Shown one piece after another: positions 11,367 to 37,292 of a stretch of DNA of 64,000 bases. The stretch's first letter is position 1. Each line of letters begins with the position of its first letter. The position numbers and the translations under genes were made by a program. Source of the DNA: Cobetia amphilecti (lineage in GTDB: Bacteria; Pseudomonadota; Gammaproteobacteria; Pseudomonadales; Halomonadaceae); NCBI RefSeq assembly GCF_020217465.1, contig NZ_CP084115.1, positions 2,170,001 through 2,234,000 on the forward strand, given 5' to 3'. The notes beneath the pieces are model-generated. The model worked only from the letters and a program-made list of their open reading frames with translations, was not told where the DNA came from and did no database searches.

Positions 11367-12896
11367 TCAGTGCTTGCGCCAGTCCTCGAGCTTGTCGCTC
11401 AACTGCTGACGACGCGCTTCGGGCGATGCCAGCGTCTCGGACTGATGGCCTTCCCCGAAGCGATTCTCGAGATAGTCCATCAGATTGATCAGCTCATCAT
11501 CGGTCAGGCTGTCATCGAAGGCCGGCATGAAGACACTGTGGCCATTGTTCTCACGCTGCACGCCATTGAGGATCGCCTGGGCCAGATTGTCCGGATAGAC
11601 ACTGCCGGTCACGCTGTTGTGGAACAGCGACGGGTAGTAGCCATCCTGGGTGCCGGCACCATCCGCGCCGTGGCACATGGCGCAGTGGCCCAGATACAGA
11701 CGCACGCCCGGCGTGGCATCGGTCAGCTGGCCGATCAGATCTTCATCGTCGGGACGCTTGTCCAGCGGCTGACCGCGCAGCAACAGCACGTCATCGGCCG
11801 GTGCGCCCTGATTGAAGCGCGTGGCGACCTGCGGCTCGCTTTCGGCCTCGCGATCGCCATCATTGACCGCCTCGCCCTGCTCGCCCTTGCCATCCACCGC
11901 CGGAATCGACTTCAGATAGACCGCGATGGCGCGCAGGTCATCTTCACTCATGTGACGCATGGAGTGCTCGACCACATCCGCCATCGGGCCGCCAGCCTGC
12001 GCCTTGCCCTTGAGGTTGCCGGTCGCCAGATAGGTCTGGATATCCTGCTCGCTCCAGCTGCCCAGACCATCCTGCATGTCCGGCGTGAGGTTGAAGGCGC
12101 GCCAGCCCTCGATCATCGCCCCACCCAGATAGCCTTCTTCATCACCGGTCAGTGCCGTTTCCTGGAAGGCGAAGCCACGTTCGGTGTGACAGCTGCCACA
12201 GTGGCCCGGCCCCTGGACGAGATAGGCGCCACGGTTCCAGTCGGCACTCTTGTCCTCGTGGTCCTGCCACGGCTCCAGCGGCGAGAAGATCTCTTCCCAC
12301 AGCGCCATCGGCCAGCGCATGTTGAGCGGGAACGGAATCTCGCTTTCGCGGTTGGGCGTGCTGCTCGGCGTCACCTCATGCATGTTCCAGGCGTAGAGCG
12401 CCTTGATGTCCTCATCCGTCAGACGGGCGTAGGACGGGAACGGCATCGCCGGATAGAGGTTGTGGCCGTCGGCAGCCTCGCCCTCGCGCAGCACACGGGT
12501 GTATTCCTCGAGGGTGTAGTTGCCGATGCCGTGCTCGGTGTCCGGGGTGATGTTGGTGGCGTAGATCTCGCCCACCGGGGTCTCGAAGCCGAGGCCACCG
12601 GCATATTCATCGCCGTCCTCGGTGCTGTGACAGGCCGCGCAATCGCTGGCGCGCGCCATGTACAGACCCTTTTCGATCAGCGCGGGGTCATTGGTGGCAG
12701 CCTTGTCGGCTTCCACCTGGCTGGCGTGCTCGTCCTCGCCACTACCACAGGCGCTGAGCAACAAGGCGCTGGTGCCCGCAATGGCGGCCAGGCGGACGGC
12801 ACGGGTCAGGCGTGCGGGGCGAAGGATCGGGCGGGCACCGCGACCTTTCTCATCAATGGCATCACGGGTGCCAGCAGTACGGACGTGCGGGACCAT
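11367..12896 (-). CDS. Triheme cytochrome c subunit of membrane-bound dehydrogenase
   Basis: This is the electron-transfer subunit that passes electrons from a GMC flavoprotein dehydrogenase towards the quinone pool or terminal oxidases. It has 509 residues. A long basic N-terminus precedes a lipobox (LLLSAC, Cys50), suggesting a lipoprotein anchor. Three heme-binding CXXCH motifs are present: CAACH at 86-90, CGSCH and CAMCH. The layout matches the cytochrome subunit of acetic-acid-bacteria alcohol and gluconate dehydrogenases. I chose ATG 12896 because AGGAA precedes it and the upstream GMC gene stops 2 bp before it (TAAGCATG), implying coupling. An upstream in-frame ATG at 12962 lies inside the GMC gene. 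Confidence 0.88.
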   Translation of the reverse strand: MVPHVRTAGTRDAIDEKGRGARPILRPARLTRAVRLAAIAGTSALLLSACGSGEDEHASQVEADKAATNDPALIEKGLYMARASDCAACHSTEDGDEYAGGLGFETPVGEIYATNITPDTEHGIGNYTLEEYTRVLREGEAADGHNLYPAMPFPSYARLTDEDIKALYAWNMHEVTPSSTPNRESEIPFPLNMRWPMALWEEIFSPLEPWQDHEDKSADWNRGAYLVQGPGHCGSCHTERGFAFQETALTGDEEGYLGGAMIEGWRAFNLTPDMQDGLGSWSEQDIQTYLATGNLKGKAQAGGPMADVVEHSMRHMSEDDLRAIAVYLKSIPAVDGKGEQGEAVNDGDREAESEPQVATRFNQGAPADDVLLLRGQPLDKRPDDEDLIGQLTDATPGVRLYLGHCAMCHGADGAGTQDGYYPSLFHNSVTGSVYPDNLAQAILNGVQRENNGHSVFMPAFDDSLTDDELINLMDYLENRFGEGHQSETLASPEARRQQLSDKLEDWRKH

Positions 12897-12898
12897 GC

Positions 12899-14512
12899 TT
12901 ATATTTCCTGTTCGAGCAGATCGGCAATACGCAGAGACAACGCCGCGATGGTCAGGGTGCAATTGACCGACCCGACGGTGGGCATGCTGCCGGAGCTGGC
13001 GACAAACAGGTTGTCATGGCCATGCACTCGGCAATCGCGATCCACCACGGAATCTTTGGGGTTGTCTCCCATCAGGGTCGTACCGCAGATATGCTGGTTG
13101 TTGGAGAACTCATCACGGAACGCGATGTCGGTGCCTCCCATCAGCTGAGCGATACGCGCATATTGTTCACGGGTATGCGCGGCGCTGCGCTTGACGTAAT
13201 CATCGATAGCATAACGGAATTCCGGGCGCGGCAGGCCGAGAGCGTCATGTTTTTTTGACGGCGTGATGCGATTGGCGGCCTCTGGCAACAGCTCGTGGAA
13301 GCTGTCGAACTGCACATAGCGGCTGGCGCGGTTATCGATCTGCGCCTGCAGATCCGCGCCGAGCCTGAGCGGTGTTTCCGACAGCACTTCGGTCGTCATC
13401 TGCTGCGTGCGGGCAATGTTGGACAGGTGCAGCTTCTTGGACGCGAAGTCCTTGCGGAAGTCGCCGTCGCGCCAGGTGATGATGGAGGTCATCTCCTGAG
13501 GGCCACGCCCAGCCCACAGCGGCTCATCGGCCAGAAAGCTCACCCCGGTGCCGGGATGGTCCATAAGATGCCGGCCGACCATGTCGTTCTGGTTACCCAC
13601 CCCATCGGGGGTATGGGCGTTGACCGACATCTGCATCAGCTTGGGCGTCTCGATGCCATTGGCCGCCAGCACCACTCGCGCCGCACTCAGGCGATGCTGC
13701 GTGCCCTCGGGGTCCAGATAACGTACCTCGCGAATCTTGCCACTGGCGTCGCTCTCCAGGTGATGCACGATGGCATTGTCGATCAGCCTGGCACCGGCAC
13801 GTTCGGCCTTCTCGACATGGATGATGCCGGAATACATCGCGCCGATCGGGCAGATGGGCATGCAGTTGTTGTTGCCACAGCAGGTCGGGCGCTCATCATA
13901 GGGGCGGCTGTTGCGCGCCACCGGCTCGGTGACCATGTCAAAGCCGTGGGGATTGATGCGCTCGCTGACCCGCCGCTCGTTCCACGACAGCGGCAGAGGC
14001 GCCATCGGATACTCGGCGCTGCGTGGGCTGCCGAGATCGACATCATTCGGCCCCCAGACACCCAGCGCAACCTCAGCCCGGAAGTAATAGTCTTCCAGAT
14101 CGTCATAGCCGATCGGCCAGTCGCGCCCGACGCCATACTCGCTCTTGAGCACGAAATCGCTGGGCAGAAAACGCCAGGAAGACGCCGCCCAGTGCCAGGT
14201 AGTGCCACCGACCGCGCGAATGTACTGGGCGTCGTAGGCCTGCTCGCCCTTCTGCACCAGATAGTCGGCATTCTCGCCGTAGAGCATCGGATGGGGCGCC
14301 GCCTTGCTGGCAGGATAGGGCCCCATGAAGTCCATCTTGTTGGCCTGGTTGCGGAAGCGCTCGACGATCTGCCAGCGCTGCATGCGCGGGCCGGCTTCCA
14401 GCATGATGACCGACTTGCCGGCCTCGGCCAGGCGATGTGCGATCAGGGCACCGGCAACGCCGGAACCGACCACGATCACATCGGCATCATACGCACGGGA
14501 TTCCTCGGCCAT
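12899..14512 (-). CDS. GMC-family FAD dehydrogenase, large subunit
   Basis: This is the catalytic flavoprotein of a three-subunit periplasmic dehydrogenase of the gluconate/sorbitol/2-ketogluconate type; the exact substrate cannot be told. It has 537 residues with an FAD-binding Rossmann motif GSGVAG at 16-21, then the GMC elements GGTTWHWAASSWR and TCCGNNNCMPICPIGA (Cys-rich loop). The C-terminal NQHICGTTLMGDNP and SVNCTLTIAALSLRIAD carry the catalytic His/Asn region. ATG 14512 has GAGGAG upstream. It has no signal peptide of its own and probably rides out with the Tat-exported small subunit encoded upstream. Confidence 0.9.
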   Translation of the reverse strand: MAEESRAYDADVIVVGSGVAGALIAHRLAEAGKSVIMLEAGPRMQRWQIVERFRNQANKMDFMGPYPASKAAPHPMLYGENADYLVQKGEQAYDAQYIRAVGGTTWHWAASSWRFLPSDFVLKSEYGVGRDWPIGYDDLEDYYFRAEVALGVWGPNDVDLGSPRSAEYPMAPLPLSWNERRVSERINPHGFDMVTEPVARNSRPYDERPTCCGNNNCMPICPIGAMYSGIIHVEKAERAGARLIDNAIVHHLESDASGKIREVRYLDPEGTQHRLSAARVVLAANGIETPKLMQMSVNAHTPDGVGNQNDMVGRHLMDHPGTGVSFLADEPLWAGRGPQEMTSIITWRDGDFRKDFASKKLHLSNIARTQQMTTEVLSETPLRLGADLQAQIDNRASRYVQFDSFHELLPEAANRITPSKKHDALGLPRPEFRYAIDDYVKRSAAHTREQYARIAQLMGGTDIAFRDEFSNNQHICGTTLMGDNPKDSVVDRDCRVHGHDNLFVASSGSMPTVGSVNCTLTIAALSLRIADLLEQEI

Positions 14513-28674: not shown

Positions 28675-29697
28675 ATGTCCAAGTTGATTCTTTCTCTGGA
28701 TGGCGGCGGCATACGCGGGGCGGCCACCGCTCAATTTCTGATGCGTGTCGATGCGACACTCAGGAATGAGCACCGTACCAGTCTGCGTGAGCAGGTCGAT
28801 TTCTATGCAGGCACCAGCACCGGCAGCCTGATCGCGCTGGCGCTGGCGACCACCGACATGAGCCTCGAGGACATCAATGGGCTCTACAGCGCGACCAGCG
28901 TCAGGCAGATCTTCGCCGACAACCGCGGCTGGTTCGAACTCGATGGCATCAATGCACCCAAGTACGAGGCCAAGGGCAAGAGCACGATGCTCAAGAAGCA
29001 CCTCGGCCAGGCCAAGCTCAGGGATGTCCCCGCTGGCAAGCAGGTGCTTGTCGTCACCTACGGCATCGAGAGACGCCGCCCGCATGTCCTGAAGTCGAGC
29101 AAGCGCGAGCATCACAAGCTGCTGGCCTGGCAGGTGGCGGATGCCTCCAGCGCGGCGCCGACCTACTTCCCGACCCGAGACATGAAGCTCGGGCCGGACA
29201 ACGAGCAGACCTGGCTGATCGATGGCGGCGTCATCGCCAACAACCCCACCATGTGCGCCATCGCCGAAGCCTGTCGCCTGTGGCCGCATGAGCCGCGTCG
29301 CGTGCTGTCGATCGGCACCGGAACACGCACGCGCAAGATCAATGGCCCGGATTCGCAGCACTGGGGCGCAGTACAGTGGGTGCTGGAAGGCAGCCTGATC
29401 GACGTGCTCTCCGATGAGAAGGTGGTCGGCTATCAGGCCATCACCATCTCGCCGCCGGGCAGCTATATCCGCGTCAATGCCGAGATGCGCCCGCAACCGG
29501 GGATGCTCAAGGCGCCTGATGACGCGATGGACGACATCAGCACCACCAACATCAAGCATCTGAAGGTCATGGGCGATTTCTGGTTCGAGCAATATGGTGA
29601 CGCCGTGGTGGCCCTGATCACCGACCGCTACCAAGGGCCCTCGCTTGACCGCATCGATCCTCTCACCGGCCGGCCGCAAGCCTATCAACCGCACTGA
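28675..29697 (+). CDS. Patatin-like phospholipase
   Basis: This is a 340-residue acyl hydrolase of the patatin family. The oxyanion-hole loop DGGGIRG is at 9-15, the nucleophile elbow GTSTG at 46-50 (Ser48) and the catalytic Asp in DGG at 183-185. This is the Ser-Asp dyad of lipid acyl hydrolases acting on phospholipids or galactolipids. It has no signal peptide, so it is cytoplasmic. AGGAGG precedes the ATG. Patatin phospholipases also serve as effectors of CBASS antiphage systems, but no cyclic-nucleotide synthase gene lies nearby. The next gene (exported coiled-coil protein, 90 bp on) may be co-transcribed. Confidence 0.88.
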   Translation: MSKLILSLDGGGIRGAATAQFLMRVDATLRNEHRTSLREQVDFYAGTSTGSLIALALATTDMSLEDINGLYSATSVRQIFADNRGWFELDGINAPKYEAKGKSTMLKKHLGQAKLRDVPAGKQVLVVTYGIERRRPHVLKSSKREHHKLLAWQVADASSAAPTYFPTRDMKLGPDNEQTWLIDGGVIANNPTMCAIAEACRLWPHEPRRVLSIGTGTRTRKINGPDSQHWGAVQWVLEGSLIDVLSDEKVVGYQAITISPPGSYIRVNAEMRPQPGMLKAPDDAMDDISTTNIKHLKVMGDFWFEQYGDAVVALITDRYQGPSLDRIDPLTGRPQAYQPH

Positions 29698-29787: not shown

Positions 29788-30987
29788 ATGACACATGGCA
29801 CACCGCAAGACACTCGCATTCGCCCCGCCACCTCAACATGGCGAATGCTGGTGACTTTCACATTATCTCTGGCGATTCTCGTACCCACTACAGCGCAGTC
29901 AGACGACGATATGCACTTTGACCAGCCGGAAGCCTTCGCCACCCTGAAGAAGGCGGTCAGCTATTTCGATGAAATGGATACCTTGCCGGAAGAGGCATGG
30001 ATCAGCCGAGATCAAGCGTCGGCGCGCAGCGATATGGACGAGATGATAGAGGAAGCCATGCAGGCCCTCGACGTCCCGCAACTCTCGACACTGCGCAGCA
30101 CCTATCGCCAGGTCGAGGACAAGATACGCGAGTCGCGTAGCGAGATTTCCGAGTTGAAGGAAAAGCGCATCCTTGCGCCTGACACCGATGTCTCGACGCT
30201 GACGCGCCTCACGCCCACCGACACCCTGCGCGAATTCACCGCCAGTACGCGCGGCGATTATGATCTGCTGATCGCCGCGCATGAGAAGAACATCGCCGCC
30301 TATCAGGGCGAGCTGACCACGCTGGAAGGCAAGCTGGCCGCGCGACTCGAGGAGATCGGCATCACCCTGACGCCAGACCAGATCCAGGTATGGCTGTCCT
30401 CGGTGGTCGGCGATGATGTGCTGACCATGAGTGTAGTGTTCGCCAGCATCAAGTCGGTGGCCCAGCAGCTCGCGGAGCTGACCCGCGACAGCGGCGAGAA
30501 CCTCGACTACGCGCGTCGTTATTACGGCATGGTCGTCATGCTTCACCGCATGATCGTGACCATGCAGCAGGACTTCATCACGCGCGTGAATGATGAGGTA
30601 CTGCCGCAACTGCAAGGCTTCGCCGACGAAGCCGAGGCCACCACGCGAGAAGCGCGCACGCTGATCAAGCAAGGCGGATCACGCGAGAGCCTGGAAAACA
30701 ACATCCGCGCCAATACGCTGACGCTCAAGACGATCAACCTGTATCGTTCGCTGGTCACCGAGCAGCGCGACCGCGTCACGACCTCTCTGACCAAGAGCCA
30801 GCGCGAGCTTGCGGTGGCGACCAATACCTATCGCACCGTCAAGCTCAGCGCTCACGTCGCCGACCTGATCCGCCAGGGTGTCAAGACCTTCGACACCCTC
30901 GCCGGACTGCAGGTGCCGGTCGCCACCAGCTTCGAGAACAGCGCTATGCGCGAGGAATTCCGCAAGCTGACCGAGCGCATGCGCTAG
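29788..30987 (+). CDS. Exported coiled-coil protein of unknown function
   Basis: This is a 399-residue protein. An N-terminal hydrophobic segment (MLVTFTLSLAILVPTTAQS) acts as signal peptide or anchor. The rest is predicted to be largely helical, with heptad-rich stretches (RSTYRQVEDKIRESRSEISE, LTTLEGKLAARLEEI, NNIRANTLTLKTINLYRSLV). No catalytic motif or known domain recognised. It may form a long periplasmic rod. The preceding patatin gene on the same strand is the only obvious partner. A 782-bp gene-free stretch follows. Confidence 0.7.
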   Translation: MTHGTPQDTRIRPATSTWRMLVTFTLSLAILVPTTAQSDDDMHFDQPEAFATLKKAVSYFDEMDTLPEEAWISRDQASARSDMDEMIEEAMQALDVPQLSTLRSTYRQVEDKIRESRSEISELKEKRILAPDTDVSTLTRLTPTDTLREFTASTRGDYDLLIAAHEKNIAAYQGELTTLEGKLAARLEEIGITLTPDQIQVWLSSVVGDDVLTMSVVFASIKSVAQQLAELTRDSGENLDYARRYYGMVVMLHRMIVTMQQDFITRVNDEVLPQLQGFADEAEATTREARTLIKQGGSRESLENNIRANTLTLKTINLYRSLVTEQRDRVTTSLTKSQRELAVATNTYRTVKLSAHVADLIRQGVKTFDTLAGLQVPVATSFENSAMREEFRKLTERMR

Positions 30988-31096
30988 CAGTCCACCTCCC
31001 TCTGGGCCAGAGGCAGGAAGCATGGTTCAGAGGGCATTTACCGTCTCTCTTCGGCAGGTTGCGCACGGCTTTCAGTTATCGATCATCTCTATGGGC

Positions 31097-31180
31097 TTGA
31101 GACATGGAACCTGAGATATACAACCTGAGACATGGCACTTGAGATCTAGCACTTGAGAAACAGAGCTTCAGGCACGGAGC
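31097..31180. repeat. 14-bp tandem repeat, six copies
   Basis: Contiguous 14-bp units: TTGAGACATGGAAC, CTGAGATATACAAC, CTGAGACATGGCAC, TTGAGATCTAGCAC, TTGAGAAACAGAGC and TTCAGGCACGGAGC. The strict 14-bp phase across 84 bp, with point differences only, points to an old slippage array. Confidence 0.85.
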
Positions 31181-31265
31181 TTGAGATTCACGCTGTTTCG
31201 CCCACTGCTCCCTCCGCACTTCGCGAATTACTCCGCTGCCCGTTTCGTTCCTGACTCCCCTCTTT

Positions 31266-31293
31266 ATTCCATCCTGATCATTCCATCCTGATG
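31266..31293. repeat. 14-bp direct duplication
   Basis: ATTCCATCCTGATC is followed at once by ATTCCATCCTGATG. It has the same period as the array 86 bp upstream, with unrelated sequence. Confidence 0.85.
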
Positions 31294-31769
31294 AGAGTCT
31301 CTTCTGCTCTCAGCCCTGCTTTCCGCTGTACCCTCTCACTCAGGCCGTCCCCGTATCCTCTGTCAATCTTCCCTTGGCGACTTCGCCTGACCTCCTCCTC
31401 GCGGCTGCTCTTTCTGATTACTCTTGAAGACTGCTCTTGACGGTAGAGGTTTTCCGTTAATTCAACTATCCAACTCCAGCTTCAGTGGCCCCTGCTCTCG
31501 AGACGCCCACCATGAACTTGCGGGAAATCGCTAAACTTTAGAATAATCGCAGAACCTGAACTAACATGAAAACATGTCAGACTAGCAGGTGGCAGAACAT
31601 CACCTGATGAGAAATACGTTCTTGACCCTGGATAGCCGGATTGAAGAGCGACAAGGCTTGTTCAGAGGAATCACACAGGAATGTCAGTCCTTTGACTGGG
31701 AGATTGATAGTCATTATCCAGGTCAGGACGCCACGATTTGCCTTCGTTACCCATGACAGGACGTGACTC

Positions 31770-33266
31770 ATGCGCAAGCAATCGTTACGGACAACGGGAC
31801 TGCTGGTACTGGGCAGTATGGTAGGGATCACCACCGCTCATGCCAGTGAAGCAACCGAGACCACATCTCCCAGGGCCGAGATCGAGCATGGGAAATACAT
31901 CGCCCGGGCGGCTGACTGCGCGGCTTGCCACATGGGCCCTGATGGCACGCCATACGCTGGGGGCCGGCCGATCAGCACGCCGATGGGCGACGTGGTCGCC
32001 ACCAATATCACATCATCAAAGGAATACGGTATCGGCGATTATTCGCTGGAAGACCTCACCAACGTATTGCGCCATGGCAAGACGCCCGACGGCAGCCACC
32101 TGTATCCCGCCATGCCTTACCCTTCCTATCGTGGCATGAAGCAAGACGATATCGCGGCACTATACGCCTATCTGCAAAGTATTCCCGCAGTGGATCGCGA
32201 ACCCGAGGCCCACACCGACATGGACTTCCCATTCAATTTCCGGATATTGATGGCGATGTGGAATACGCTCGAACTTGAAGATGATCCTGCCTCACAGGGG
32301 CAGGATGGGGCGGTGAGTCGTGGGCAATACCTCGTGGATCATCTGGCACATTGTGGTACCTGCCATACCCCTCGCGATGATTTCATGGCCAGTGACTCGA
32401 CGCGTTATCTGAGTGGTGCACGGTTGGGAATCTGGTCGGCCCCCAACATAACCTCCGATGAGACGTCGGGTATCGGTGCCTGGCAAGACCAGCAACTGGC
32501 GGATTATTTCAAACATGGCATGGCAGGCTATGTCGCCCAGGCAGCCGGCCCCATGGGCGAGGCTGTCCATCAGAGCCTGCAATATCTGAGCGAGAAGGAT
32601 CGTCTGGCGATCGCCGCTTATCTGAAGACGGTGCCAGCAATTGAGGATGAGACCCAGCAACAGCCCGTGTTCGATCAGATGGCCAATCAGGCACTGCTAG
32701 GCCATGAGCCGGTGGTGAGCCCCGCCACCCGCCACCGCGAAGACACGCTGGCAACGCAAGGCCTCAGGCCAGACGATATCGCGCAACCAGACACCGGACA
32801 GGGGCTCTACCTCACCCATTGTGCAGCCTGCCACGCGGCGGATGGCAATGGTCAGCCGGTCTCCTACTACCCGAGTCTGAACGGGAACACCACCCTGCGG
32901 CGCGCCGACCCGCGCAACCTCATCGCGGTGATTACCGAGGGTGTCGCCTATCAAGGCGCGACGCCACTGCCTCAGATGCCGGGCTTTGCTGAAGTGTTGA
33001 GCCATGCCGAGACCGCCAAGGTGGCCAACCATGTCAGAACCGAGTTTGGCGGGCACGACGAGAGTCAGCTCACGGCGCAGGACGTCAATGAGCTGATCAC
33101 GGGTGAGCGCCCGGTGCCGGCACTGATACGCCACGCCGGTACCCTCGCCTGGCTGGGCATTATCGTGGCCGTGACACTGGCGGGCCTCGCTGGTTGGTGG
33201 CTATGGCGGCGCCGTGATCGCCGCCAGCCCGCCAGTGCCACGTCCAATACCCATCACTCGCCATAA
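31770..33266 (+). CDS. Triheme cytochrome c with C-terminal membrane anchor
   Basis: This is a 498-residue periplasmic cytochrome. A Sec signal (cleavage near TTAHA-S) leads to three heme motifs: CAACH at 50-54, CGTCH and CAACH. It ends in one membrane helix (LAWLGIIVAVTLAGLAGWWL) and a basic cytoplasmic tail. It is homologous to the cytochrome subunit encoded at 11367-12896, a type normally paired with GMC dehydrogenases. Here the next gene, 10 bp downstream, is a flavin amine oxidase, so it probably takes electrons from that enzyme. The anchor is C-terminal helix rather than lipid, unlike its paralogue. Confidence 0.88.
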   Translation: MRKQSLRTTGLLVLGSMVGITTAHASEATETTSPRAEIEHGKYIARAADCAACHMGPDGTPYAGGRPISTPMGDVVATNITSSKEYGIGDYSLEDLTNVLRHGKTPDGSHLYPAMPYPSYRGMKQDDIAALYAYLQSIPAVDREPEAHTDMDFPFNFRILMAMWNTLELEDDPASQGQDGAVSRGQYLVDHLAHCGTCHTPRDDFMASDSTRYLSGARLGIWSAPNITSDETSGIGAWQDQQLADYFKHGMAGYVAQAAGPMGEAVHQSLQYLSEKDRLAIAAYLKTVPAIEDETQQQPVFDQMANQALLGHEPVVSPATRHREDTLATQGLRPDDIAQPDTGQGLYLTHCAACHAADGNGQPVSYYPSLNGNTTLRRADPRNLIAVITEGVAYQGATPLPQMPGFAEVLSHAETAKVANHVRTEFGGHDESQLTAQDVNELITGERPVPALIRHAGTLAWLGIIVAVTLAGLAGWWLWRRRDRRQPASATSNTHHSP

Positions 33267-33276
33267 GGGTGTTCTC

Positions 33277-34881
33277 ATGCCTACGCCTCCTTTCATGACA
33301 CGTCGCGACCTGCTGACCATGATCGGCAGAACCGCTGGTGCGAGCGCACTGTATTCCGCCATGTCCTCCATGGGCCTTGCCAAGGCCTCGACCTTCACCG
33401 GTGAATTGAATCTCTCACAGGCCCCCAAGGGCGACAGCGTCCTGGTGCTGGGGGCCGGCCTCGGGGGCATGACGGCGGCCTACGAATTGCGCAAGGCGGG
33501 TTACGACGTCAGCGTACTGGAATACAGCGAGCGGGCCGGCGGGCGCTGCTTCACGCTCCACGCCGGGGATACGGTCACTGATCTTTCCGGCGAGACACAG
33601 CACTGCGACTTCTCACCTGGCAACTACATCAATGTCGGCCCGTGGCGGGTGCCTTATCACCACTACGGTGTGCTGCATTACTGCAAGAAATTCGGGGTCA
33701 AGCTAGAACCCTTCATCCAGCTCAACTACAACGCCTATGTGCACGCGCAGAACGCTTTTGAGGGCAAGCCACAGCGGGTACGGGAAGTGCTGACCGACAT
33801 CCACGGCTACACCTCGGAGCTGCTGGCCAAGGCCACCGACCAACGTGCACTGGACGAAGTACTGACGAAGGAAGACTGCGAGGCTCTGCTCGACCAGCTG
33901 GATGACTGGGGGCGCCTGACCGGCGATCACCAGTATCAGCAAAGTCTCAAGGCCAGCCGCTTCCGAGGCTACGAGCATTGGCCTGCCGGCGGCCTGATGC
34001 CAAGGCCGTCGCCCAGCAAGCCACTGGATTTCAAGGAGCTGCTGCACTCCGGCCTGTGGGGACTGCTGCTGGATTACTTCAACAACGAGTACCAGCACAC
34101 CATCTTCGAGCCGGTGGGCGGCATGGATCAGATCGCCAAGGGCTTCGCGCGCGAGGTCGGGGACCTGATTGAATATCGCGCCCAGGTGGTGCGCATCGAA
34201 CAGTCCGAGACTCAGGTCATCGTGCACTACATCGACCCGAGCCGGCCGGACGACATCAAGACGCGCAGTGCCGACTGGTGCGTGTGCAACATTCCGCTGT
34301 CGATCCTCAGCCAGATTCCAGTGGATGCCTCGCCGGCCTTGCGTCAGGCCATCGCCGCAGTGCCCTATGGCAGCTCCACCAAGACCGGTCTCGAGTTCAA
34401 GCGTCGCTTCTGGGAACAGGACGAGAGCATCTTCGGGGGTATTACCTTCACCGACCTGCCAATCACCACCATCTCCTATCCGGCCTACGACTACTTCAGT
34501 GATGGCCCGGCGGTCCTGCTGGCTGCCTACACCTTCGATGATCCCAACAGCTACACGATGTCCACGCTGACCGCCAGGGAACGCATCAAGGCAGCGCTGG
34601 CCTACGGCAAACAGATCCACCCCCAGTATGAAGAGGAATTCTTGAGCGGGGTCTCGTGGTCCTGGCATCGCAGCCCCTGGTCACTGGGCTGCTACGGCCT
34701 GTGGACCGATGAACTGCGTGCGGCACACTACGAGACACTGTGCGAGATCGATCATCGACTGGTGCTGGCCGGCGAGCACTGCTCCTACATCCCTGCCTGG
34801 CAGGAAGGCGCCATTCTGTCGGGCATGGATGCCAGCCAACGTCTGCACGAGAAAGCCACCAAGCACAAGGCAAGCGCCTGA
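33277..34881 (+). CDS. Tat-exported flavin amine oxidase
   Basis: This is a 534-residue FAD enzyme of the monoamine/L-amino-acid oxidase fold. TRRDLLTMIGRTAGAS (8-23) is a twin-arginine signal, so the folded flavoprotein is sent to the periplasm. LVLGAGLGGMTAAYEL (57-72) is the dinucleotide motif, ERAGGRCFTL is the second FAD contact and the C-terminal LAGEHCSYIPAWQEGAILSG is the hallmark flavin-pocket segment. The substrate is unknown, likely an amine or amino acid. ATG 33277 was chosen for the Tat signal; ATG 33295 would shorten it. It lies between two cytochrome c genes, which suggests it acts as a dehydrogenase feeding the respiratory chain rather than an H2O2-forming oxidase. Confidence 0.87.
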   Translation: MPTPPFMTRRDLLTMIGRTAGASALYSAMSSMGLAKASTFTGELNLSQAPKGDSVLVLGAGLGGMTAAYELRKAGYDVSVLEYSERAGGRCFTLHAGDTVTDLSGETQHCDFSPGNYINVGPWRVPYHHYGVLHYCKKFGVKLEPFIQLNYNAYVHAQNAFEGKPQRVREVLTDIHGYTSELLAKATDQRALDEVLTKEDCEALLDQLDDWGRLTGDHQYQQSLKASRFRGYEHWPAGGLMPRPSPSKPLDFKELLHSGLWGLLLDYFNNEYQHTIFEPVGGMDQIAKGFAREVGDLIEYRAQVVRIEQSETQVIVHYIDPSRPDDIKTRSADWCVCNIPLSILSQIPVDASPALRQAIAAVPYGSSTKTGLEFKRRFWEQDESIFGGITFTDLPITTISYPAYDYFSDGPAVLLAAYTFDDPNSYTMSTLTARERIKAALAYGKQIHPQYEEEFLSGVSWSWHRSPWSLGCYGLWTDELRAAHYETLCEIDHRLVLAGEHCSYIPAWQEGAILSGMDASQRLHEKATKHKASA

Positions 34882-34957
34882 GGGGGCCAAGTTGATCTTC
34901 CACGACACCGGTTCATCGGCGAAGGGCGCAACCAGGCAAGCAACGAAATTCGCCACC

Positions 34958-35698
34958 ATGGGATGGCGTAGCAGCGTGATGGCCTGTGCTCTGGGCGCGG
35001 TGAGTCTGACCACCACGGCCCTGACGGTATCGGCCGCCGCAGCGACGAACGACAGTATGCAACATCACCGTCTCACGCCGCCGTGGGTAGTGAGTCAGGC
35101 AGACTCCCGCCAGGCCACCACGGCACCCCCGGACCGGAAGCCTGAACAAGGGGCGAAAAAGACACCCGAAAGCGGTGCTGGCGGGCCTTCCCGAGAAGGC
35201 GCCAGCAACTCGACTGACAAGACCGCCGAGGACAGCTCTAGGCCAGGCGCCAGCAAGGGCACCCTGAAAGCCACCGGCGAGGCAACGGGGAAGACAGGCA
35301 CTATCAGTGCGCCCGTCACGTCCGGCAGCCAGGAGGTGAACCCGCGCTGGGAGGAGTGGTTTGCCGACACCAAGGGCTATTCCGCCAGCAGCGGCAAGGC
35401 AGTCTATGAGACCCTGTGTCAGGCCTGCCACATGGCAGATGGTCAAGGCGCTCAGAGTGCCGGCACCTTCCCGTCCTTCGTCGGCAATGAACGCCTGCGC
35501 ACGCCCTACTATGCCGTTGATGTGGTGCTCAATGGCCTGCGCGGCATGCCTGGCTTCGGCGACACCTTGAGTGACAAGCAGATCGCCGATGTGGTGAATC
35601 ACCTGCGCAGCCATTTCGGCAACCAGCTCGAGGCGACGCTGAGCGCCGAGGATGTCGCGCGCATGCGTCCCGATCTCGGCAAGGCCGAACCTCGCTGA
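34958..35698 (+). CDS. Monoheme cytochrome c with low-complexity linker
   Basis: This is an exported cytochrome of about 246 residues. A Sec signal (MGWRSSVMACALGAVSLTTT, cleavage near SAAAA) is followed by a roughly 90-residue disordered linker rich in Thr, Ser, Gly, Lys and Pro. A C-terminal class-I cytochrome domain carries one heme motif (CQACH in YETLCQACHMADGQG) and the distal Met in GLRGMPGFGDTLSD. The ATG at 34958 starts directly at the signal. A TTG at 34892 with AGGGGG 5 nt upstream is an alternative that would add 22 residues. Probably the mobile or tethered acceptor for the amine-oxidase system. Confidence 0.8.
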   Translation: MGWRSSVMACALGAVSLTTTALTVSAAAATNDSMQHHRLTPPWVVSQADSRQATTAPPDRKPEQGAKKTPESGAGGPSREGASNSTDKTAEDSSRPGASKGTLKATGEATGKTGTISAPVTSGSQEVNPRWEEWFADTKGYSASSGKAVYETLCQACHMADGQGAQSAGTFPSFVGNERLRTPYYAVDVVLNGLRGMPGFGDTLSDKQIADVVNHLRSHFGNQLEATLSAEDVARMRPDLGKAEPR

Positions 35699-35786
35699 AG
35701 CCGGGCGTACCTATCCTGTGGTCAGCAATCACGCCCGTCCGCAGGCCACAGGATCACGACAGCGAGTGTCGTCATACCCGTCAGGA

Positions 35787-37292
35787 CTAGCGTAGCGGGG
35801 AGCCGCCCAGCGGGGTGCCGCCCAAACGGATGTCGCGCATGCTCAGGATGCTCTCCAGCGTGCGCCGTAGGCGCGCCACCTCGTTGACAAGGCTATCTCC
35901 CGCCAACATCCCCACTCCGAGCACCAGGCCACGACGCGAATCATTGGCACTACACACCGGACTTAACGGCCGCACGATCAGATGCTCCTTGACCATCAGT
36001 TGCGCGACGCGCTTGTCGTCGATCTCGGGGGCAAATTGCACGCACAGGCTGATACCGCGTGATGGCGGCGAGACACTGATCACGCCCTTCACCTGGCACA
36101 GCTGGTCATGCACCACCTGCTGTCGGCCCAGATAATCGCGCTGGATGCGCTGATACCAAGCGTCCAGATCGCCATCGGCGATGAACTGCGCCAGCACCGC
36201 CTGATCGAGCATTCGCCCCTCGCGGAACACCTCACTGCGCAGACGGTTCATCGGCCCGGCCAGCGCGCGCGGTACCACCAGGTAGCCCAGCCGCAGCCCG
36301 GGAAACATCAGCTTGGAGAACGAGCCCACCAGCAGGCGATTGCCGGAATCGGGATCAAACAGCAACTCGCCATGATCATCACCGCTGAACTCGTAATCAT
36401 CCTCGAGGATATAGGCGGGCTGACAGACCTCGCAGAGCGCCAGCTTGTCACACCGCGAGGTGGGCACACTCAAAGGATAGTGATGCGAGCCGGTGAAGTA
36501 GGCAATCTGCACCGGCCCCTTGGCAAGCGCGGTGAGATCATGTCCGGCCTCGCCCGTCGTGTCGCTAACAGGCCGCCAGGGAATCTGCCGGGTCTCGAGT
36601 CCAGCGGCCAGAAAGACATTGCGTGCCCCCCAGTAGCAGGGAGACTCCATCACCACCTGCTGCCCCGCATCTGCCAGCGCCAGCGCGCACAGTTCGATGC
36701 CGTGGTGAGTGCCCTCGGTGATGATGATCTGCTGGGTATCGCAATCGATATTGCGCCAGCGGCGTAGAAAATCGCGTATCTCACGCTTGAGCGGGCCGTA
36801 GCCGCCGCTCGAATACGACAGCAGCAGCGCATTGTGGGGCACCGTCACACTGGCATATAGCTGACGCCACTTGCGCATCGGAAAGCGTGCGATATCCGGA
36901 ATGCCCGGCACGAAGGCACCACTCTGGATCAGGCTGGCCCCCTGCCCGCCCAGCACCCGGTGCGCACGGGTGGAGAGCGGCAGTGGCACAGGTGATGCCT
37001 CAGGCATGGCGCTGCCGGGTCTCGCGGCATAGGGGCGGCGCGTCCAGGTGCCCTGACCCTGCCCGGTGTGTAGATAGCCCTCATCTATCAATGACTTAAT
37101 GGCCAATGACAAGGTGTTGCGCGCCACCCCCAGTGCATCGCACAGTTTGCGGTGCGGCGGCAGCCGAGCACCGACGGGCCACTGTTCGCGGATCATCTCC
37201 AGCAACGCCTGCTCCAGGCGCACCTGCTTGCCCAAGGTCTCGGACTGGCGGCGATAACATTCGATCAGCGGCTCAAGCGCAGCCAGTTCCAT
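35787..37292 (-). CDS. gabR: MocR/GabR-family PLP-dependent regulator
   Basis: This is a 501-residue transcription factor. Residues about 20-90 form a GntR-type winged helix (WPVGARLPPHRKLCDALGVA, LAIKSLIDEGYLHTGQGQG). The rest is a class-I aminotransferase-like domain: IITEGTHHGIEL, the EDDYEFSGDD segment and the PLP lysine in VGSFSKLMFPGLRLGYL. MocR proteins of this type sense GABA as an external aldimine and activate gabTD. Divergent from gabD with a 276-bp gap containing a phased direct repeat, so the GabR assignment is well supported by context. ATG 37292 has GGGAGA upstream. Confidence 0.85.
   Translation of the reverse strand: MELAALEPLIECYRRQSETLGKQVRLEQALLEMIREQWPVGARLPPHRKLCDALGVARNTLSLAIKSLIDEGYLHTGQGQGTWTRRPYAARPGSAMPEASPVPLPLSTRAHRVLGGQGASLIQSGAFVPGIPDIARFPMRKWRQLYASVTVPHNALLLSYSSGGYGPLKREIRDFLRRWRNIDCDTQQIIITEGTHHGIELCALALADAGQQVVMESPCYWGARNVFLAAGLETRQIPWRPVSDTTGEAGHDLTALAKGPVQIAYFTGSHHYPLSVPTSRCDKLALCEVCQPAYILEDDYEFSGDDHGELLFDPDSGNRLLVGSFSKLMFPGLRLGYLVVPRALAGPMNRLRSEVFREGRMLDQAVLAQFIADGDLDAWYQRIQRDYLGRQQVVHDQLCQVKGVISVSPPSRGISLCVQFAPEIDDKRVAQLMVKEHLIVRPLSPVCSANDSRRGLVLGVGMLAGDSLVNEVARLRRTLESILSMRDIRLGGTPLGGSPLR

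What the first reader, a model, noticed from the sequence alone, without database searches (positions are those of the whole stretch)
31770..35698. Periplasmic flavin amine oxidase encased by two cytochrome c genes
The three genes lie head to tail: triheme cytochrome c with a C-terminal anchor, Tat-exported amine oxidase and an exported monoheme cytochrome. Amine oxidases of this fold usually hand electrons to O2 and make H2O2. The triheme cytochrome belongs to a type that normally serves GMC-type alcohol or gluconate dehydrogenases, and a paralogue at 11367-12896 does exactly that. The arrangement suggests a respiratory amine or amino-acid dehydrogenase built by pairing an amine-oxidase flavoprotein with a borrowed cytochrome module. 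I know of no standard name for it.
Basis: partly seen in the sequence, partly recalled or inferred. Interest (0 to 1): 0.65.

Follow-up and report, generated by a model that had tools for sequence, protein, structure and literature searches.

The report
Amino-acid dehydrogenase with borrowed cytochrome
Three neighbouring genes probably make a bacterial enzyme set that strips electrons from amino acids outside the inner membrane and feeds them to respiration through cytochromes; the core pair resembles a known gene cluster, but the extra three-heme cytochrome looks like a part borrowed once from sugar- and alcohol-oxidising enzymes.

Summary
In detail: TriC (31770-33266, three CxxCH, C-terminal helix), FAO (33277-34881, Tat-like motif, flavin amine oxidoreductase) and MonoC (34958-35698, one CxxCH) lie head to tail. 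[quoted passage not shown] carboxylate-binding Arg and flavin Lys kept in 60 of 60 FAOs), so L-amino acids are likelier substrates than amines. The core is not new: FAO-cytochrome-(exported RidA) resembles the lao-cccA-ridA cluster of Gluconacetobacter diazotrophicus, and Tat amine oxidoreductases beside a cytochrome c gene are proven cytochrome-using dehydrogenases. What my literature searches did not find is the added triheme subunit. Of 60 FAO loci, 14 have TriC-FAO-MonoC, always in that order; their FAOs form one clade (99/96) inside the MonoC-bearing set, and their TriCs one clade (100/100) apart from GMC-linked and unassigned triheme cytochromes. In 5 of 5 congeners the flanking genes are adjacent: a 4.8-kb unit was inserted here. 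Best reading: a respiratory L-amino acid dehydrogenase that gained, once, the quinone-linked triheme subunit of GMC dehydrogenases. Substrate, electron route and O2 reactivity are inferred, not shown.

The parts
31770..33266 (+). TriC: triheme cytochrome c, membrane-anchored, of the GMC-dehydrogenase cytochrome-subunit type
   Evidence: ORF; 3 CxxCH; best solved relative fructose dehydrogenase cytochrome subunit 7w2j, E 5.1e-95
31917..31931 (+). heme-binding site CAACH, TriC domain I
   Evidence: residue 50
32352..32366 (+). heme-binding site CGTCH, TriC domain II
   Evidence: residue 195
32820..32834 (+). heme-binding site CAACH, TriC domain III (the domain homologous to MonoC)
   Evidence: residue 351; MonoC against TriC domain III 39% identical
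33141..33206 (+). C-terminal hydrophobic helix of TriC, followed by a basic tail
   Evidence: read from the translation; no topology program was run
33277..34881 (+). FAO: Tat-exported flavin L-amino acid oxidoreductase (lao type)
   Evidence: Pfam Amino_oxidase 2.4e-54; R. opacus L-amino acid oxidase 2jae E 1.5e-86; R124, K369, Y418, W508
33301..33306 (+). twin arginine of the Tat-like signal (TRRDLL)
   Evidence: read
34958..35698 (+). MonoC: exported monoheme cytochrome c (cccA type) with a long N-terminal extension
   Evidence: Cytochrome_CBB3 4.5e-14; best solved matches lie in the third domains of fructose and alcohol dehydrogenase cytochrome subunits
35417..35431 (+). heme-binding site CQACH of MonoC
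   Evidence: residue 154
30983..35806 (.). inserted unit: not at this site in 5 of 5 congeners, whose flanking genes are adjacent; right edge 35806-35826 depending on the congener

Best explanation
A periplasmic respiratory L-amino acid dehydrogenase. FAO, exported folded by Tat, takes a hydride from an L-amino acid and makes the 2-imino acid, which hydrolyses to keto acid and ammonia (many relatives encode an exported RidA beside it that would speed this). Reduced flavin gives its electrons one at a time to MonoC, its common partner, rather than to O2. TriC, membrane-anchored and of the kind that links GMC dehydrogenases to ubiquinone, was added once to this older two- or three-gene unit; it most likely collects electrons from MonoC (or directly from FAO through its third heme domain, a homologue of MonoC) and passes them to the quinone pool. 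The unit then spread by horizontal transfer and entered this genome as a 4.8-kb insert. Shown here: gene content, order, homology, residue conservation, single association of TriC with FAO in this sample, insertion. Inferred: substrate class, poor O2 use, electron order, quinone as acceptor.
For: Best solved relatives are L-amino acid oxidases; 176 of 466 aligned residues identical to the R. opacus enzyme, with Arg124, Tyr418 and Lys369 at the places of its substrate-binding Arg and Tyr (roles recalled) and the flavin lysine; in 60 FAOs R is kept in 60, K in 60, Y in 55. Adjacent MonoC in 47 of 60 loci, RidA near in 35 of 60; 30 of the 35 RidAs begin with a signal or lipoprotein peptide by eye. 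TriC in 14 of 60, always TriC-FAO-MonoC on one strand. FAO tree: the 14 form one clade, 99/96, nested in the MonoC-bearing set. TriC tree: the 14 are one side of a branch, 100/100, against 24 others, 19 of them beside GMC genes. In triplets MonoC has 126 or more residues up to its heme site in 11 of 14, against 0 of 32 readable MonoC-only loci. Literature: lao insertion mutants lost IAA formation from tryptophan, and ccm mutants (cited there from earlier work) made 5% of wild-type IAA (PMC5053998); most tested Tat FAOs with an adjacent monoheme cytochrome react with it far faster than with O2 (PMC12224317).
Against: No activity, substrate or complex was measured for any triplet. The PMC12224317 survey was seeded with NicA2, not with this L-amino acid oxidase branch, so the O2 argument is carried over; in that paper one FAO used both O2 and cytochrome, and the clade paired with membrane-bound diheme c4 cytochromes reacted only modestly with them. 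R. opacus LAAO, the closest solved enzyme, is named an oxidase. RidA is near only 1 of 14 triplets (L004) but 24 of 33 MonoC-only loci, so the imino-acid argument is weaker for the triplets themselves. A quinone role for TriC is carried over from GMC enzymes. The genome also encodes a caa3-like cytochrome c oxidase and a cbb3-like one that scores below the curated cut-offs, so MonoC could bypass TriC. Three triplets (L003, L026, L061) lack the long MonoC extension.
Confidence: 0.7

Rival explanations
1. FAO gives electrons to MonoC, which goes straight to a cytochrome c oxidase; TriC is a parallel acceptor or only a membrane dock and is not in the main path.
For: MonoC without TriC is the arrangement in 33 of 60 loci; the genome encodes a caa3-like oxidase and a weaker cbb3-like match.
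Against: TriC is kept in all 14 members of its clade, in one order, across gammaproteobacteria and an alphaproteobacterial plasmid; MonoC is longer in 11 of 14 triplets, which suggests that the two interact.
Confidence: 0.2
2. FAO passes electrons directly to TriC domain III, as GMC dehydrogenases do, and MonoC is a secondary or regulatory cytochrome.
For: MonoC and TriC domain III are homologous, so either could fit one docking face; TriC lies first in the gene order.
Against: MonoC is present in all 47 cytochrome-bearing loci, TriC in 14 of them.
Confidence: 0.2
3. An H2O2-forming periplasmic L-amino acid oxidase; the cytochromes scavenge peroxide or serve something else.
For: The closest solved enzyme is named an oxidase; the flavin lysine that promotes reaction with O2 is kept, though PMC12224317 says nearly all dehydrogenases keep it too.
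Against: FAOs with an adjacent monoheme cytochrome gene tested in PMC12224317 mostly react far faster with it than with O2; ccm mutants of G. diazotrophicus made 5% of wild-type IAA (cited in PMC5053998).
Confidence: 0.12
4. The true substrate is a primary amine or one special amino compound (for example arginine feeding the neighbouring GABA genes), not L-amino acids in general.
For: A MocR-type regulator, succinate-semialdehyde dehydrogenase and GABA transaminase genes follow in the window; a route from L-arginine by an oxidase/dehydrogenase to GABA is described in PMC2242806.
Against: The MocR gene is present in 5 of 5 congeners whose site lacks the triplet (the other two genes were not checked there); 20 flanking proteins at other triplets show no shared pathway; Arg124 and Tyr418 fit an alpha-carboxylate.
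Confidence: 0.12

Closest known systems
lao-cccA-ridA cluster of Gluconacetobacter diazotrophicus PAL5 (GDI2456-2454; PMC5053998)
   Same: Tat-exported L-amino acid oxidase-like flavoprotein adjacent to a cytochrome c gene and RidA; published primers for GDI2456 translate to YPSHGYF at 404 and QVIHPNY at 447, like YPAYDYF at 401 and KQIHPQY at 445 of the window FAO
   Different: no triheme cytochrome in the passages read; the window has no RidA near; the full GDI2456 sequence was not compared
NicA2/CycN, Pnao and other cytochrome-c-using flavoprotein amine oxidoreductases (PMC12224317)
   Same: Tat flavoprotein of the amine oxidoreductase superfamily with an adjacent monoheme cytochrome c gene
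   Different: the survey was seeded with NicA2; here the nearest solved relatives are L-amino acid oxidases; a triheme subunit is added (the word 'triheme' is not in that paper's main text)
Triheme cytochrome subunits of fructose, glucose and alcohol dehydrogenases
   Same: TriC is homologous over most of its length (7w2j 5.1e-95, 8hdd 3.2e-88), with the same three-heme plan
   Different: the partner here is an amine oxidoreductase and not a GMC protein; FAO-linked TriCs form a clade of their own
Rhodococcus opacus L-amino acid oxidase (2jae)
   Same: sequence family and the Arg, Tyr, Lys and Trp compared
   Different: named an oxidase; no cytochrome partner is part of its description (recalled)

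Membership tests
flavoprotein amine oxidoreductase superfamily (PF01593) | Amino_oxidase domain over the gathering score | tested here: met
   185.7 bits against a cut-off of 19.8
cytochrome-c-using FAO dehydrogenases (PMC12224317) | Tat signal on the flavoprotein | tested here: met
   TRRDLL near the N-terminus; by motif only, SignalP was not available
cytochrome-c-using FAO dehydrogenases (PMC12224317) | adjacent cytochrome c gene | tested here: met
   MonoC and TriC on the same strand
cytochrome-c-using FAO dehydrogenases (PMC12224317) | fast reduction of the cytochrome, slow reaction with O2 | not testable with these tools
   needs stopped-flow kinetics
lao-cccA-ridA cluster | LAAO-like flavoprotein followed by a monoheme cytochrome gene | tested here: met
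   47 of 60 related loci, window included; primer-derived motifs
lao-cccA-ridA cluster | adjacent RidA | tested here: not met
   none of the genome's four PF01042 matches lies in the window; RidA near 1 of 14 triplets. The window is a relative of this cluster, not a full copy
L-amino acid oxidase branch | nearest solved relatives and carboxylate-binding Arg/Tyr | tested here: met
   residue roles recalled
triheme cytochrome subunits of GMC dehydrogenases | three CxxCH domains and C-terminal anchor, homologous over most of the length | tested here: met
triheme cytochrome subunits of GMC dehydrogenases | GMC partner gene beside it | tested here: not met
   neighbour is FAO in all 14 loci; the window's GMC gene sits beside the paralogue at 11367-12962
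quinone-linked dehydrogenase | electron transfer to ubiquinone | not testable with these tools
   inferred from TriC homology

The most novel reading that the evidence does not exclude
Evolution converted a soluble, cytochrome-c-linked L-amino acid dehydrogenase into a membrane-bound, quinone-reducing complex in a single step, by recruiting a whole triheme subunit from the GMC dehydrogenases onto an enzyme that already used a free-standing homologue of that subunit's third domain; the three genes then moved as one self-sufficient cassette between Halomonas, Marinobacter and other lineages, and between bacterial classes.
Probability: 0.45. Interest if true: 0.62.

Novelty: new variant of a known kind. 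Interest (0 to 1): 0.5.

Why it matters
It would extend cytochrome-using amine oxidoreductases to the L-amino acid oxidase branch, so that many genes labelled 'flavin monoamine oxidase' need not make H2O2. It also offers a clear case of one kind of electron-transfer subunit beside two different flavoprotein families (GMC and amine oxidoreductase), with paralogues of both kinds 19 kb apart in one genome, so partner recognition can be tested by swaps. The exported RidA companions of relatives point to imine clearance in the periplasm.

Tried and rejected
Structure: the AlphaFold model of FAO from a 9-row alignment had mean pLDDT 48.7, too poor to use; no fold search was run. Substrate from neighbours: 20 flanking proteins at other triplets (RidA of L004 among them) gave chemoreceptors, a sensor pair, an ammonium transporter, YceI, flavodoxin-like proteins and others, with no shared pathway. 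GABA genes as a clue: set aside because the MocR gene stands next to the upstream gene in congeners whose site lacks the triplet. MonoC/TriC-domain-III tree: 106 columns for 61 rows, too few to say which came from which; TriC domain III attaches beside the triplet MonoCs, which leaves that open. Promoter and terminator scan: counts near those of shuffles. Literature: 'L-amino acid dehydrogenase' with respiratory chain or with cytochrome c and flavin found nothing; 'amino acid oxidase' with 'triheme' found 0 papers; 'L-amino acid oxidase' with RidA and cytochrome found 4. These cover only the held open library. NicA2 is not named among the 60 best of 99 solved-structure matches shown.

First trees had 9 triplets and gave the same answer as the final ones with 14. 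From the final TriC tree three near copies (L080, L085, L087) and six ORFs over 600 aa (L097-L099, L101-L103) were left out. L046 MonoC start could not be read; L007 FAO is split in two ORFs. MonoC lengths rest on the first ATG/GTG near the FAO stop. A loose RR pattern hit 59 of 60 FAO ORFs, but at least four hits (L017, L040, L047, L059) are not at a believable signal, so that count is not used as evidence. RidA was sought within 3.5 kb; four of the nine MonoC-only loci without it hold only about 1.5 kb of flank, so RidA may be undercounted there.
Full report
What is there. The window holds three + strand genes with short gaps: TriC 31770-33266, FAO 33277-34881 and MonoC 34958-35698. TriC has three CxxCH motifs, MonoC one. 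TriC ends in a hydrophobic helix and a basic tail. FAO carries TRRDLL near its start. Pfam gives Cytochrom_C, Amino_oxidase and Cytochrome_CBB3 respectively.

What the flavoprotein is. Its best match among solved structures is the L-amino acid oxidase of Rhodococcus opacus (E 1.5e-86; the organism is recalled, the call names 2jae), followed by other L-amino acid oxidases, among them reconstructed tetrapod ancestors; monoamine oxidase B (8.8e-14) and putrescine oxidase (1e-11) come far behind. Over 466 aligned positions 176 are identical. The Arg and Tyr that hold the substrate carboxylate in that enzyme (roles and numbers recalled, not from a call) correspond to Arg124 and Tyr418, and the flavin lysine to Lys369. 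In 60 FAOs Arg is kept in 60, Lys in 60, Tyr in 55 with 4 Phe and 1 gap. This favours L-alpha-amino acids over simple amines.

What TriC and MonoC are. TriC matches over most of its length the cytochrome subunits of fructose and glucose dehydrogenase (5.1e-95 and 3.2e-88). MonoC is a free-standing relative of the third domain of such triheme subunits: its best solved matches lie in the third domains of fructose and alcohol dehydrogenase cytochromes, and it is 39% identical to the corresponding part of TriC.

How widespread. At E <= 1e-60 FAO relatives occur in 7 of 151 genomes of the family sample, 6 of 369 of the class sample and 27 of 398 of the phylum sample (the window's own genome counts in each); at E <= 1e-150 in 9 of 341 of the order sample. 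One scan of named genomes gave 10 loci. 37 plasmid records match, of which I read 8 with annotation. From all these, 60 distinct FAO loci were compared: 47 have MonoC beside FAO, 35 have RidA near, 14 have TriC. All 14 TriC loci also have MonoC and run TriC-FAO-MonoC on one strand. The 13 loci lacking MonoC are all 38% identical to the window FAO or less; 10 of these have RidA.

RidA. By eye, of 35 RidA-type proteins 30 begin with a signal or lipoprotein peptide, 2 do not, and 3 could not be read because the ORF runs on upstream. RidA hydrolyses imines made by L-amino acid oxidases (as stated in PMC5053998, passages read). Only 1 of 14 triplets (L004, Halomonas halodenitrificans) has it in the stretches held, most of which reach 5 kb or more on each side (L104 ends soon after TriC), against 24 of 33 MonoC-only loci. 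The window genome has four PF01042 matches, none in the window. Why triplets lack the neighbour is unexplained.

One association. In the tree of 60 FAOs plus the R. opacus enzyme the 14 TriC-bearing FAOs form one clade, support 99/96, in 100% of 200 bootstrap trees, nested in the MonoC-bearing set; the 13 without cytochrome stand apart, support 90/78. In the tree of 38 triheme cytochromes the 14 FAO-linked ones are one side of a branch, 100/100, against 19 with a GMC gene beside them and 5 with no partner seen in the short flank. In a 299-genome phylum sample at E <= 1e-85 the only three TriC matches outside the FAO-linked set all lie beside GMC genes. So TriC joined FAO once, as far as this sample shows, and both have travelled together since. 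Roots are midpoint roots, so direction (TriC gained by FAO, not lost elsewhere) rests on the TriC-bearing FAOs being nested in the wider MonoC set. The tree program warns that long branches meet at the base of the FAO-linked TriC clade.

A change in MonoC. In triplets 126 residues or more precede and include the MonoC heme site in 11 of 14 loci, against 0 of 32 readable MonoC-only loci; L003, L026 and L061 are the exceptions. Five share a TPPW motif (L001, L002, L004, L005, L010), and the six of family code f2 have a lipoprotein-like cysteine, by eye. This may be a contact or tether evolved with TriC. Start codons were chosen by rule, and related loci are not independent.

Insertion. In 5 of 5 congeners held, the matches to the genes that flank the triplet here end 80-117 bases apart, and FAO is absent from those genomes at E <= 1e-60. 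Homology to them stops at 30982 and resumes at 35807-35827. The unit of about 4.8 kb is thus an insert in this genome; between 31023 and 31770 no further ORF of 100 aa or more was listed. The genus cannot be named from the calls; one genome of the same family has a contig of the same length, and the same match scores, as the named record of Halomonas sp. PR-M31.

What is known. PMC12224317 (abstract, passages, sections 13, 14 and 18 read) shows for FAOs found from NicA2 that a Tat signal plus an adjacent cytochrome c gene predicts a cytochrome-using dehydrogenase; two clades pair with monoheme class I cytochromes and react fast with them, one pairs with diheme c4 types and reacts modestly; its main text has no 'triheme'. 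PMC5053998 (abstract and passages read) reports the lao-cccA-ridA operon, loss of IAA formation in lao insertion mutants, and cites ccm mutants with 5% of wild-type IAA. Primers printed there translate to motifs at like places in the window FAO. PMC10805672 (passages read) repeats that cluster and describes an algal LAO1/RidA pair. [quoted passage not shown] its kinship to the window FAO was not tested. PMC9396064 and the other papers were seen as listings only.

Mechanism. Shown: genes, order, conservation, single association in this sample, insertion. Inferred: L-amino acid oxidised to imino acid; electrons to MonoC; then to TriC and ubiquinone. The quinone step is carried over from GMC enzymes (general knowledge). 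The genome encodes a caa3-like oxidase and a bo3 quinol oxidase over the curated cut-offs and a cbb3-like one below them, so both quinol and cytochrome c exits exist.

Verdict. A real, conserved unit; a new variant of a known kind. The core is known; the fixed triheme addition appears in no paper that I saw through my ten searches, which cover only the held open library.

Noticed in passing
window 31098-31167: About five tandem copies of a 14-base unit (TGAGACATGGAACC-like) in the lower-GC stretch upstream of TriC, inside the inserted segment; perhaps a regulator site.
   Followed up: no
L013, L014, L018, L031, L059 and others (RidA beside FAO-MonoC): RidA-family proteins with signal or lipoprotein peptides, apparently periplasmic; 30 of 35 by eye.
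   Followed up: partly
window 28675-29697 and 29788-30987: Patatin-like phospholipase scoring 148.9 bits on the NCBIfam CBASS lipase model (cut-off 200), followed by a protein with no Pfam match; the second is matched in 5 of 5 congeners.
   Followed up: no
L037-L045, L019-L021, L048: More distant FAOs without the adjacent cytochrome gene, 10 of 13 with RidA near; perhaps oxidases or users of another acceptor.
   Followed up: partly
L113 and L117 (L118, L121): One genome (G1095) carries two different TriC-FAO-MonoC triplets on two contigs.
   Followed up: no
L097-L099, L101-L103: Triheme-type domains in ORFs of about 890 aa, apparently fused to another domain.
   Followed up: no
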